A stretch of 64,000 bases of DNA from a virus: positions 1-64,000 of IMG/VR virus record IMGVR_UViG_3300044998_000260; one strand, 5' to 3'. Under the pieces are notes generated by a model. It was not told where the DNA came from, made no database searches, and was given only the letters and a program-made list of their open reading frames with translations. Of the stretch, positions 37,558 through 43,293 are shown in pieces; position 1 is the first letter of the stretch; every line of letters starts with the position of its first letter. The position numbers were made by a program, and so were the translations under genes.

Positions 37558-37699
37558 TAGCGTTCCTCAGTAATACCCACCAGGCACCTCCCGCTACCTG
37601 AAACGTCATTAGTGACGTTAAAGGCAGTGGAAGTGTCGATGGAGTTCCGACTACAAATGATCCCACAAAAAACAACGTGGGTAAAAATGTCTTAAGCAT
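37502..37699 (-). CDS. Possible small membrane protein
   Basis: 65 aa from the ATG at 37697-37699 with GAGG 9 nt upstream. Two hydrophobic segments (TFLPTLFFVGSFVVG and LTSLMTFQVAGGAWWVLL) suggest a two-span membrane protein. It fills the otherwise empty 134-bp gap before the 36793 gene and overlaps that gene's first 56 nt in another frame and the ATPase stop by 8 nt. Could be an anti-host or holin-like peptide; uncertain. Confidence 0.45.
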   Translation of the reverse strand: MLKTFLPTLFFVGSFVVGTPSTLPLPLTSLMTFQVAGGAWWVLLRNANVKSFTRNKECNVGHGRD

Positions 37700-39290
37700 A
37701 ATTTTCTGCCTCACCAAGAGCATTTACAAACTCTTGACCGTATTTAGACATCTTTAGTAGATGATGTTGTGTAACCTTGGTCCCCTCGGCGTGAGCAATC
37801 GTTTGTGCCAACCGAATACTGTTCTTAATTTGACGACCGTTAATCTCAATCTTAGACAAAACATCCAGATCAAAAGTTGAATAATCAATTTTTGCCGCAC
37901 TGAGTAGGTTCTTCCGGATTGACCGTCGAATCTCGTCGGTCATTTCACCGTAATGAATTGCCAATGAAATGCGGCTGTGGAATGCTCGGTCAAAATTCTT
38001 TACACGGTTCGTGGTGAGGAACATAACACCATTGAAATATTCGAGCAACCGAAGGAAGATACCAACCATTGCATTTCTTTCAAGATCATGGTCAGTACGC
38101 TGTTCTAGGAAAATGTCTGCTTCGTCAAGCAACAATACAGCATTCCATCGGCCGGCAAGTTCAAGAATCTGTCCCAGCTTGGTTTCAAGCTGTTGTGGAT
38201 TCGTACCCAATTCACCAACAGACACCACATATAGTGGACGCTGAAGTGTTTCGGAGGTAGCTTCTGCGGTCAGCGTTTTACCAACACCAGGTGCGCCGTG
38301 TAACAGAAAAATGAACCCACCACTCTTACCACCAACGATATCGCTAAATCCCGATCCGTTGTGTTCTACTAGAGACTTGATGATAAACTTACGATCTTCG
38401 TCAAGTACCAACTGATCAAACACGCCGGTATTGAACACCACCGGAGAAACAAAGTCTACCTTACCAATCGCCCAACGCTTATGACGGAAACTGAATACTG
38501 GAATAAACGGCGAAGTCATATAGAGCTGGTCGTCGGGGATGACGAGTTCTGACTGTTGTGTATCGTCATTGTTGTGACGATGTTCCCACGAACGCATGCT
38601 CAGCGCGTCAAGTATGTTTGGTTCGTCGTTTCTCATACCCAGTCCATCAACCATTACTCGACCGTTACCAGACATAGGGAACCATCCTATCCATGATGGA
38701 CGGAAGATTTCTCCTTGGTAGTTCATGTATGATGCCTTACTGGTAACTTCTCGGAATACTCGACCACGTGCAACAAGCTTATCAAGCTCTGCGCCCGCTT
38801 CGAGCTTGCGGAATGGAAGCTCATTCATCGTGCGGGTACCTTCCCACCCGCGAAACGTTTGACTGTTTACCGCCAGTTCAATTGTGCCGCGCTCACCAAT
38901 AGAAATACAACGATATGAAATCTGAATCGTGGGACCGAAAAATCCATAATTGATGTTGATACTGACCAGTTCTCCACCAACGGATTCACCCATATAATTG
39001 ACAATGATCTTGTCACCACAATTGAACACGTCGGTTATATCGTCTACAATATAGTTACCACTTTCAAAGCGAAGCTTACGATTCTTTTCGTTTTCTCGCT
39101 TCTCGGCACGTGTCAGTTTTTCACGAACGCGACGATCTTGGTCTTCGTTGGCAGTTGCCACTGCTTCCATTGCCTCCATCAAATCGTGTACAACACTTCT
39201 TGACGGCTTGCGGCGTGGTGCCTTTTTTACAGGCGTCTTTTTGGTAGCAACTTTCTTTACAACTTTCTTTGGGGTCTTTATAGTAGGCAT
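37692..39290 (-). CDS. AAA+ ATPase with N-terminal basic tail
   Basis: 532 aa. A Lys-rich N terminus (PKKVVKKVATKKTPVKKAPRR), an intermediate beta domain (~80-290) and a C-terminal AAA+ module: Walker A LLHGAPGVGKTLTAEA near residue 330, Walker B LLLDEADIFLEQR near 385, sensor 1 FLTTNRV near 425 and the arginine finger region FHSRISLAIHY. The sequence around WNAVLLLDEAD and EYFNGVMFLTTNRVKNFDRAF is strikingly like AAA+ ATPases of unknown function widespread in fungi and some bacteria, not like phage clamp loaders or ClpX. It may unfold or remodel a protein complex. Confidence 0.85.
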   Translation of the reverse strand: MPTIKTPKKVVKKVATKKTPVKKAPRRKPSRSVVHDLMEAMEAVATANEDQDRRVREKLTRAEKRENEKNRKLRFESGNYIVDDITDVFNCGDKIIVNYMGESVGGELVSININYGFFGPTIQISYRCISIGERGTIELAVNSQTFRGWEGTRTMNELPFRKLEAGAELDKLVARGRVFREVTSKASYMNYQGEIFRPSWIGWFPMSGNGRVMVDGLGMRNDEPNILDALSMRSWEHRHNNDDTQQSELVIPDDQLYMTSPFIPVFSFRHKRWAIGKVDFVSPVVFNTGVFDQLVLDEDRKFIIKSLVEHNGSGFSDIVGGKSGGFIFLLHGAPGVGKTLTAEATSETLQRPLYVVSVGELGTNPQQLETKLGQILELAGRWNAVLLLDEADIFLEQRTDHDLERNAMVGIFLRLLEYFNGVMFLTTNRVKNFDRAFHSRISLAIHYGEMTDEIRRSIRKNLLSAAKIDYSTFDLDVLSKIEINGRQIKNSIRLAQTIAHAEGTKVTQHHLLKMSKYGQEFVNALGEAENYA

Positions 39291-39302: not shown

Positions 39303-40016
39303 TTATTCGTCGATTCCGGCGAGCCACTCCTGCTTGAGTGGGTCACGTTCAACGGTGGTTGCCATATGATCTGCCCAATGAATTACATAAGGCAGGTTGG
39401 TGTGAATTGGAAATTTACCATAGTTGACATAGTATGACTTATTGCTTTCATCATACAAACCATCGGAAAGCTTGATAGACAACCATTCCTTATAAGTTAG
39501 TTCAATTCCGCGAGACTGAAGAATGAACAACGCGCCATCAGTGACCTTCATGTAAGGCAATCGGTCATTATTCTTGAACATTTCGTTCTGATTTTTGCGG
39601 TGCCAATCAGAATCTTGTGGAATATAATAGGGTTCTCCTCCGGGCAAACCCAACTTCCAAAGGTCGTGATGAATTGCTGCCATAGTCAATTCACTCTTTG
39701 TAAAGTCTAACGAACCCCCTTTCTTATGAAGCACCTTAGCGAAGTCCATTGCACAATCATATACATGTAATACGTGGTCAATGTAGCCGCCGGCATAAGC
39801 ATTATGATAATGGAGCTTGCTTGACGCCGGAGCTTCCGTGAGTCGGCTGCCATAATCTTCATACATCGAAACTAACTTGTCCATTCGAGAACTGTGTTTG
39901 CCAAAGGCGTCTTCCATTACCGAAAAAAGTCGAGTCTTCTGTGCCTCAAGACGTTCCATCTCGGTTGTATATTCAGTTACAGCGTCTTGAATTTCAGGTT
40001 CAACGGTCGTGGTCAT
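39303..40016 (-). CDS. HD-domain phosphohydrolase
   Basis: 237 aa. HD residues: HNAYAGGYIDHVLHVYD, AAIHHDLWKLG and VIHWADHMA supply His/HD/D metal ligands. A coiled N-terminal helix (~20-60) precedes the domain. HD proteins of this sort hydrolyse nucleotides or nucleotide second messengers, but the substrate is unknown. A sigma-70-like promoter at 40058-40086 and a hairpin leader (CCTCT/AGAGG) precede it; 12 bp separate it from the ATPase gene, so both are one unit. Confidence 0.75.
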   Translation of the reverse strand: MTTTVEPEIQDAVTEYTTEMERLEAQKTRLFSVMEDAFGKHSSRMDKLVSMYEDYGSRLTEAPASSKLHYHNAYAGGYIDHVLHVYDCAMDFAKVLHKKGGSLDFTKSELTMAAIHHDLWKLGLPGGEPYYIPQDSDWHRKNQNEMFKNNDRLPYMKVTDGALFILQSRGIELTYKEWLSIKLSDGLYDESNKSYYVNYGKFPIHTNLPYVIHWADHMATTVERDPLKQEWLAGIDE

Positions 40017-41933: not shown

Positions 41934-42335
41934 TTACTTACCTGCAACTTTTACGGCCAACTTCTCCATATACTTCTTAGCAACCGTCCACATTTCGTTG
42001 TGCGCTTCTAGCTCAATTACAAGTTGTGATCTTTCCTCGTCGATTTCCTTGATACGTGCTGTAATTTCCTTGATACGATTTTCCGCACCATCATTTACAG
42101 CACGAATAAGGTTAATCTTACTACCCGTTATCTTGGTAGGCATATCTGGTAGTGGATATGCAATCTCCTGAGTGTTATTGCTTCGTTCCGACATAGGAGG
42201 AGCATAAACACGATTCAGATTGTCGAGAATACGTTCTGAATCAGGACGATTCACTCGCTTCTTACGCGACAAACCCAATCCAAGCAAAGTAGTCAAGGTG
42301 CCTCCAATTATGAATAGTAAGTTTTTCTTTTTCAT
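41934..42335 (-). CDS. Membrane-anchored coiled-coil protein
   Basis: 133 aa. N-terminal Lys patch and membrane helix (NLLFIIGGTLTTLLGLGL, residues 5-22), a Pro-rich linker, then a coiled coil ENRIKEITARIKEIDEERSQ (~85-125). It begins 9 nt after the 3' end of the tmRNA gene. Function unknown. Confidence 0.6.
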   Translation of the reverse strand: MKKKNLLFIIGGTLTTLLGLGLSRKKRVNRPDSERILDNLNRVYAPPMSERSNNTQEIAYPLPDMPTKITGSKINLIRAVNDGAENRIKEITARIKEIDEERSQLVIELEAHNEMWTVAKKYMEKLAVKVAGK

Positions 42336-42343
42336 ATGTTAAG

Positions 42344-42686
42344 TGGACCTGAGGGGGAATCGAACCCCCTGTCCAAAGCATTATACTAAGTGACTCTTCT
42401 CCGTGCGCAGTTCGTTGTCTCATTTTTGATTCAATGTATCACACCGAACAAATCTACATTGTCTCTATCCGATTGTCAATCTCGATCTTATCGGAGTCTG
42501 TCAAGATTTACCCCTTATCGTGAGTTTTTCGTTATCAGGGGATTAACGAAAAACTTCTCGGCTATATTAAGCAGCGAGAGCAAGCGCAGGATTTGCACTT
42601 AAAAGTTTGATTCCATTTAACGAGATCGAATCAGTCTCGGCACGCTTCATTCACACTTCTAACCTCTGTCGAAACCTGGCAGGCCC
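42344..42686 (-). ncRNA. ssrA: tmRNA (ssrA), tag peptide ANPALALAA
   Basis: 343 nt. The tRNA-like domain has a 7-bp acceptor (GGGCCTG with CAGGTCC) including the G3-U70 alanine identity pair, the conserved GGTTTCGACAG start and a T arm with GGTTCGATTCC. The 5' pseudoknot region GTGCCGAG...CTCGTTAAA matches bacterial tmRNA, and a tag reading frame at 42567-42596 begins GCA after TAAGT and encodes ANPALALAA then TAA. Three more stem-rich segments follow, as expected of the other pseudoknots. CCA is not encoded. It would rescue stalled ribosomes and mark the nascent chain for proteolysis. The tag ends LAA like host tags, so host ClpXP-type proteases may recognise it. Confidence 0.95.
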
Positions 42687-42697
42687 TTTGTTGCTTA

Positions 42698-43240
42698 TCA
42701 AACTTCAATAAGCAGCTCATCAAGATAATCAAACAGACTATCAATTACAACAACCTGATCTGTGTCAAACTTGTGATAATTTGACTGCATTGCCAACTTG
42801 AAATCGTCGTGTTCCTTTCTATACATATCCACCAAACGACCACCTGATTCCACATTGGCAATGCGATCAGCCACCTTCACCAACACCGCTTTGTAGTTCT
42901 GGGCAATACGCGGATACGCCTGCGCATGTCGCCACTTGCGATTGCCGCCCTTCGGTTCAGTGACCGCCGCCACAATGTCAGCAATTTCACGACCGAAGAA
43001 AGTAATTAAATCTTCGTATTCGGCATCAGTATCTTCAAGAACATCGTGCAGCCATGCGGCGACACGAAGATCTTCATCAAAAATACCAAATCGAAGTAAC
43101 ACACTTTCTACTGCCTGTAAGTGTAGAGCATACGGAAACTCGTCACCATACTTCTGCTCACCGTGGGCACGGACGGCAAATCGCTTTGCGCGGTATACCT
43201 TGTCTACGGCTTCGCGAGCCACAATGTTTACATCGGTCAT
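42698..43240 (-). CDS. HD-domain alarmone hydrolase-like protein (MESH1/SpoT type)
   Basis: 180 aa from the ATG at 43238-43240 with AGGAG 6 nt upstream. Matches the hydrolase half of RelA/SpoT enzymes: RFAVRAHGEQKYGDEFPYALHLQAVE, AAWLHDVLEDTD, FGREIADIVAAVTEP and VKVADRIANV provide the HD ligands. Length fits the small single-domain MESH1 group. It could degrade (p)ppGpp and so counteract the host stringent response during infection; the substrate is inferred. Directly upstream of the tmRNA gene, with its own promoter at 43265-43293. Confidence 0.82.
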   Translation of the reverse strand: MTDVNIVAREAVDKVYRAKRFAVRAHGEQKYGDEFPYALHLQAVESVLLRFGIFDEDLRVAAWLHDVLEDTDAEYEDLITFFGREIADIVAAVTEPKGGNRKWRHAQAYPRIAQNYKAVLVKVADRIANVESGGRLVDMYRKEHDDFKLAMQSNYHKFDTDQVVVIDSLFDYLDELLIEV

Positions 43241-43264
43241 ATTATCTCCTAGATGCTTTGTTCT

Positions 43265-43293
43265 AATATACCACACCTAGGTCTCAAAGTCAA
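43265..43293 (-). promoter_or_regulatory. Sigma-70 promoter, HD hydrolase/tmRNA unit
   Basis: TTGACT at 43288-43293, 17 bp, TATATT at 43265-43270; the ATG is 25 nt further. Confidence 0.7.

What the first reader, a model, noticed from the sequence alone, without database searches (positions are those of the whole stretch)
42344..42686. Phage-encoded tmRNA with tag ANPALALAA
Complete tmRNA with tRNA-Ala-like ends (G3-U70), the GGTTTCGACAG start, first-pseudoknot region and a tag frame ending LAA. Phage tmRNAs are uncommon and the tag differs from the E. coli type. It sits beside an alarmone-hydrolase-like gene, which suggests joint control of stalled ribosomes and stress.
Basis: seen in the sequence. 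Interest (0 to 1): 0.75.

Follow-up and report, generated by a model that had tools for sequence, protein, structure and literature searches.

The report
Working phage tmRNA with short tag
A large, tRNA-rich phage carries its own complete copy of the RNA that bacteria use to free stuck ribosomes and mark the half-made protein for destruction; related phages keep it in the same place and natural selection preserves the tag ending it encodes, so it is a real, functional-looking example of a known but uncommon phage gene.

Summary
Window 42344-42686 (minus strand) is a complete one-piece tmRNA: Rfam RF00023, 127.4 bits, E 2e-49. It has a G3-U70 acceptor stem, four pairable pseudoknots and the tag ANPALALAA-stop. 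It lies in a 105-kb virus record with myovirus baseplate genes, 44 tRNAs and a GOLLD RNA. It is a new member of a known kind (about 2% of sequenced phages carry a tmRNA).

New here: three related viral contigs carry the gene at the same place, same strand and gene order, with tags GNQNLALAA, ANNTLALAA and GNQQLALAA. In the LALAA part all 25 pairwise codon differences are synonymous (0 nonsynonymous), and PK1, acceptor and T arms keep pairing through compensatory changes. The tag is therefore very probably translated and selected, with ribosome rescue plus LAA tagging for proteolysis the best explanation.

The 'joint control with an alarmone hydrolase' idea is not supported. The neighbour is a real SpoT/MESH1-type HD gene, but it is absent from the three nearest tmRNA contigs and found in 5 of 29 related records, never adjacent.

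Side result, more surprising than the window itself: other members of this phage clade encode long tags (about 24 or 36-39 aa) with conserved inner motifs.

The parts
42344..42686 (-). tmRNA (ssrA) body, one-piece, 343 nt without CCA; 5' end at 42686, discriminator A at 42344
   Evidence: Rfam RF00023 127.4 bits; ARAGORN
42680..42686 (-). acceptor stem P1, 5' strand GGGCCUG (pairs with 42345-42351; G3-U70 is the alanine identity pair)
   Evidence: kept in three relatives with two compensated pairs and invariant G-U
42345..42351 (-). acceptor stem P1, 3' strand CAGGUCC
42608..42639 (-). pseudoknot PK1 (CGAGA/UCUCG and UGAUUC/GAAUCA), just before the resume codon
   Evidence: exact complements; both stems re-formed with different bases in three relatives
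42567..42596 (-). tag reading frame GCA AAT CCT GCG CTT GCT CTC GCT GCT TAA = ANPALALAA-stop
   Evidence: LALAA codons differ 25 times synonymously and 0 times nonsynonymously among four phages
42556..42579 (-). helix H5 with the stop codon in its loop
42511..42554 (-). pseudoknot PK2 (GUUUUUCGUUA/UAACGAAAAAC and CCCCU/AGGGG)
42468..42508 (-). pseudoknot PK3 (AAUCUUGA/UCGAGAUU and UCCGAU/AUCGGA)
42410..42461 (-). pseudoknot PK4 (CAAUGUA/UACAUUG and GUUCG/CGAAC)
42353..42369 (-). T arm GGGGG-UUCGAUU-CCCCC
42698..43276 (-). upstream gene, SpoT-HD/MESH1-like (p)ppGpp hydrolase-like protein; ends 11 nt before the tmRNA; not part of a conserved unit with it
   Evidence: Pfam HD_4 3e-12, NCBIfam spoT_relA 7e-18, PDB MESH1 and RelA chains; not adjacent in relatives
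41934..42335 (-). downstream ORF of 133 aa, start codon 8 nt after the tmRNA; no family match
39303..40016 (-). HD-fold protein that marks the orthologous location: the tmRNA lies about 2-2.5 kb upstream of it, same strand, in the window and its nearest relatives

Best explanation
This is a functional phage tmRNA of the ordinary one-piece type. Shown by sequence: all tmRNA parts, conservation at one genomic place in related phages, and selection on the encoded tag. Inferred: it is transcribed with its neighbours, cut out by host RNases, completed with CCA by the host enzyme, and charged with alanine by host AlaRS through G3-U70. It then joins host SmpB (none was found in this record) and enters ribosomes stalled on broken or non-stop mRNAs during infection. 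The ribosome switches to GCA, adds ANPALALAA and stops at UAA. The LALAA end sends the product to host ClpXP-type proteases. The benefit, like that of the tRNA array, would be to keep ribosomes free while mRNA is degraded or host tRNAs are cut.
For: Rfam and ARAGORN; every helix present. Three viral relatives keep the gene about 2-2.5 kb upstream of the same HD gene, same strand and gene order. Compensatory pairing in P1, PK1 and T arm. LALAA codon differences 25 synonymous to 0 nonsynonymous, whereas the other two frames give 1:24 and 0:24. On a tree of the neighbouring HD protein the short-tag phages group together, and tag types need 4 changes against 10.3 in shuffles. [quoted passage not shown]
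Against: No RNA or protein data exist for this phage. No SmpB was found in the record, although the record may be incomplete. The host and its own tag are unknown. Four sequences are few for a selection test.
Confidence: 0.85

Rival explanations
1. Decoy: the phage RNA competes with host tmRNA for SmpB or ribosomes and blocks host rescue rather than carrying it out, as proposed for the TLD-only RNA of phage DS6A.
For: DS6A-type RNAs inhibit tmRNA (PMC4131195; PMC11915505). Short tmRNA-like RNAs without an evident tag occur in two huge phages (112 nt in LR756508, 137 nt in LR756511).
Against: This RNA is full length and its tag end is under purifying selection, which a decoy would not need.
Confidence: 0.06
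2. Passenger: a leftover from prophage integration at a host ssrA gene, or chance capture with the tRNA array, without function.
For: Many integrating elements use ssrA as attachment site (PMC11915505, abstract listed); the gene lies at the end of a tRNA-rich region.
Against: The gene is complete, there is no integrase match in the record, it keeps its place in related phages, and its tag and helices are conserved by selection.
Confidence: 0.05
3. tmRNA and the neighbouring alarmone hydrolase form one stress and ribosome-rescue unit.
For: Only 11 nt separate them, and the HD gene is a credible (p)ppGpp hydrolase relative.
Against: Not adjacent in any relative examined; absent from the three nearest tmRNA contigs and from 24 of 29 related records.
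Confidence: 0.04

Closest known systems
Bacterial one-piece tmRNA (ssrA, RF00023)
   Same: Acceptor stem with G3-U70, PK1, resume GCA, LAA-ending tag, H5, PK2-4, T arm
   Different: Phage-borne, no encoded CCA, 9-codon tag (most frequent length is 10, PMC11915505)
Phage tmRNAs of cluster C mycobacteriophages (Tonenili here), Bacillus phage G, huge phages LR756508, LR756511 and LR756504
   Same: Complete phage-borne tmRNA, in tRNA-rich genomes in Tonenili and phage G
   Different: Other tags: ATDTDATVTDAEIEAFFAEEAAALV, AKLNITNNELQVA, 36 aa, ANPEFAMAA and about 23 aa; no detectable DNA similarity beyond the T-arm end
Marine two-piece phage tmRNAs (Melnitz, PMC9004378)
   Same: Phage-borne ssrA
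   Different: Those are permuted and two-piece; this one is one-piece
DS6A TLD-only RNA
   Same: tRNA-like end of tmRNA in a phage
   Different: DS6A lacks tag and pseudoknots; this one has all of them

Membership tests
tmRNA (RF00023) | Covariance-model match over the curated cut-off | tested here: met
   127.4 bits, cut-off 47, model 1-374
tmRNA (RF00023) | tRNA-like ends with G3-U70 and T arm | tested here: met
tmRNA (RF00023) | PK1 upstream of the resume codon | tested here: met
tmRNA (RF00023) | Open tag frame with hydrophobic small end, then stop | tested here: met
   ANPALALAA-UAA, selected
tmRNA (RF00023) | PK2-PK4 | tested here: met
   exact complementary segments; covariation of PK2-4 not tested because the alignment there is poor
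tmRNA (RF00023) | Transcript, alanylation, SmpB binding, tagging | not testable with these tools
   needs experiment; no SmpB in record
Two-piece (permuted) tmRNA | Permuted gene order | tested here: not met
   linear one-piece order
TLD-only phage RNA (DS6A type) | No tag frame or pseudoknots | tested here: not met
Prophage att-site ssrA fragment | Partial ssrA 3' end beside an integrase | tested here: not met
   complete gene; no Phage_integrase match in the record

The most novel reading that the evidence does not exclude
In the phage clade to which the window belongs, the tmRNA is a long-kept gene whose tag has been re-invented by lineage: a short LALAA tag here, a ~24-aa tag of the form INAEELSSFTFEDAMAFVGADYAVAA in dozens of contigs, and a 36-39-aa tag of the form G-x-x-SLxGLxIDWHLA...QPTYAYAA in others. 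The long tags may carry a second, phage-chosen signal (an adaptor, phage protease or localisation signal) in addition to the terminal degron, so that rescued proteins are sent where the phage wants. The window holds the short-tag form.
Probability: 0.3. Interest if true: 0.75.

Novelty: new member of a known kind. Interest (0 to 1): 0.42.

Why it matters
It is a clean case of a phage keeping its own ribosome-rescue RNA, with evidence of selection on the tag peptide itself. The comparison also exposes a phage clade in which tag sequence and length change by lineage while the gene stays in place. That makes the open question of why phages carry tmRNAs testable by exchanging tags or deleting the gene in a cultured relative.

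Tried and rejected
A genome-contig scan for ANPALALAA+TAA gave one match, inside a Bryobacterales protein gene and not a tmRNA, so no host tmRNA with this tag followed by TAA was found; that search was exact and the host stays unknown. The same tag and looser ANP tags gave no IMG/VR match. No DNA relative of the tmRNA region in the phage collection; only T-arm-sized matches for the tmRNA alone. Genome-wide TAG recoding, considered because of a CTA tRNA, was rejected: 7 of 67 minus-strand ORFs end in TAG. The search for related loci with the HD_4 protein found nothing. The 26-aa long-tag peptide had no match in the phage collection, although tblastn is weak for so short a query. Searches for papers on long phage tags found none in the held library, which is not proof that none exist.

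Full report
Observation. ARAGORN and Rfam agree on a complete one-piece tmRNA on the minus strand, 42344-42686: RF00023 127.4 bits, E 1.9e-49, the only match over the cut-off in the 105,488-base virus record. The fold of the whole strand is only mildly better than shuffles (z -2.2), as expected for a pseudoknotted RNA scored without pseudoknots. Exact complementary segments exist for the acceptor stem, P2, both stems of PK1-PK4, H5 and the T arm. The acceptor stem has G3-U70. The resume codon GCA follows PK1, and the frame reads ANPALALAA-UAA. No CCA is encoded, as in all 44 tRNAs ARAGORN finds in the window, so a host CCA enzyme is presumed; no PolyA_pol family protein was found in the record.

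Setting. The record is a phage: baseplate wedge protein, with relatives in Microcystis phage Mel-JY01, the 484-kb huge phage LR756508 and Flavobacterium phage immuto. Upstream of the tmRNA lies a tRNA-rich stretch with a GOLLD RNA and a group I intron. No SmpB and no integrase were found, so host SmpB is presumed and an integration scar is unlikely.

Relatives. The window's own DNA has no match in the phage collection. Probing IMG/VR with an alignment of the HD protein 39303-40016 gave loci from the same place in related phages. In 50 of their records, 11 have a tmRNA over the cut-off. Three of these are the closest kin of the window tmRNA: G090/L294 (GNQNLALAA), G102/L309 (ANNTLALAA) and G105/L313 (GNQQLALAA). 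Each lies about 1.9-2.5 kb upstream of the HD protein on the same strand, with homologs of window genes 40932 and 40108 in the same order between them.

Selection. In the four short-tag RNAs the LALAA codons show 25 synonymous and 0 nonsynonymous pairwise codon differences; the shifted frames give 1:24 and 0:24. The first four codons vary freely apart from N2 (4:15). PK1 is re-formed with different bases in each sequence, and P1 and the T arm carry compensatory changes, while G3-U70 never varies. These results argue that the RNA works as a tmRNA and that the degron-like end of its tag matters to the phage. On a tree of the HD protein the short-tag group is one side of a branch in 70% of bootstrap trees, and all tag types need 4 changes against 10.3 in shuffles, so the gene is mostly inherited with the phage.

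Other tags in the clade. Relatives found through the baseplate protein and a pattern search carry much longer tags. Type F: about 24 aa, typically INAEELSSFTFEDAMAFVGADYAVAA. It was seen in 65 loci of uniform length with 42 distinct nucleotide sequences; outside the searched motif, pairwise differences at codon positions 1, 2 and 3 are 0.28, 0.25 and 0.54, the signature of a selected peptide. Type W: 36-39 aa, for example GELSLEGLDIDWHLAEYDYSAELPIGNDQPTYAYAA (G030, G098, G115, G119, G121). G112 and G116 carry a 21-aa tag, A[NK]NVIAYDFTPEGVEAEYAVA. Long phage tags as such are not unheard of: cluster C mycobacteriophage Tonenili encodes 25 aa. The conserved inner motifs were not found described in the papers held.

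Alarmone hydrolase. The gene 42698-43276 is a credible SpoT-HD/MESH1 relative. Its nearness to the tmRNA is not conserved. It was found in 5 of 29 related records: about 8 kb upstream in G023 and LR756508 (positions), about 9.5 kb from the tag motif in G138, and not within 9 kb in G140 or G141. In loci L252/L264 it lies 4-5 kb upstream. In L294 and L313 the gene upstream of the tmRNA is a homolog of window 50583-50930, which suggests that the tRNA and HD stretch was inserted in the window lineage. Joint control is therefore not supported.

Known or new. Phage tmRNAs are known: 402 of 18,146 phage genomes, 133 unique structures (PMC9004378). They occur in huge phages, some with SmpB (PMC7162821; SmpB also found here in LR756501 and LR756504), in mycobacteriophages (PMC4131195) and others. 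The Wildcat tmRNA is its most highly expressed lytic gene (PMC7474061). The window gene is a new member of that kind. The new elements are the evidence of selection on the tag in an orthologous set and the lineage-specific long tags in its clade.

Limits. The host is unknown and its own tag could not be compared. The viral records are fragments, so absences are weak. The codon counts rest on few sequences for the short-tag group. Function in infection is inferred.

Noticed in passing
L199-L283 (IMG/VR loci), e.g. L205, L215, L250; G025 (L097), G085 (L156): Large set of viral tmRNAs with a conserved ~24-aa tag (INAEELSSFTFEDAMAFVGADYAVAA and variants); third codon positions vary about twice as much as first and second, so the peptide is selected. 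Not matched in the named phage collection.
   Followed up: partly
G030 (L099), G098 (L376), G115 (L380), G119 (L378), G121 (L375): Viral tmRNAs with 36-39-aa tags sharing SLxGLxIDWHLA and ending QPTYAYAA or similar.
   Followed up: partly
L095 (LR756508.1 414804-414915) and L191 (LR756511.1 2250-2386): Short tmRNA-like RNAs (112 and 137 nt) with both tRNA-like ends and no evident tag, each in a huge phage that also has a full tmRNA; like the DS6A TLD-only RNA.
   Followed up: partly
47903-48369 (-): GOLLD RNA (198 bits) with a tRNA-Ser(gct) inside it (48228-48302); GOLLD also lies about 0.7 kb downstream of the tmRNA in G023 (L098).
   Followed up: no
47207-47279 (-): tRNA with anticodon CTA (ARAGORN 'Pyl'), a possible amber suppressor; genome-wide TAG recoding is not supported (7 of 67 minus-strand ORFs end in TAG).
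   Followed up: partly
49806-50007 (-): Group I intron match (64.9 bits) inside the tRNA cluster; host exon not identified.
   Followed up: no
42335-42345 (-): The next ORF starts 8 nt after the tmRNA; the only AGG-like ribosome-binding sequence lies in the tmRNA acceptor strand, so tmRNA 3' processing would remove it.
   Followed up: no
54167-54266 (-): Rfam tRNA match of 100 nt missed by ARAGORN, unusually long (long variable arm or intron).
   Followed up: no
37692-39290 (-): AAA ATPase resembling phage ATP-dependent protease phrog_29662, near the tmRNA locus; could be a phage protease for tagged proteins, not tested.
   Followed up: no
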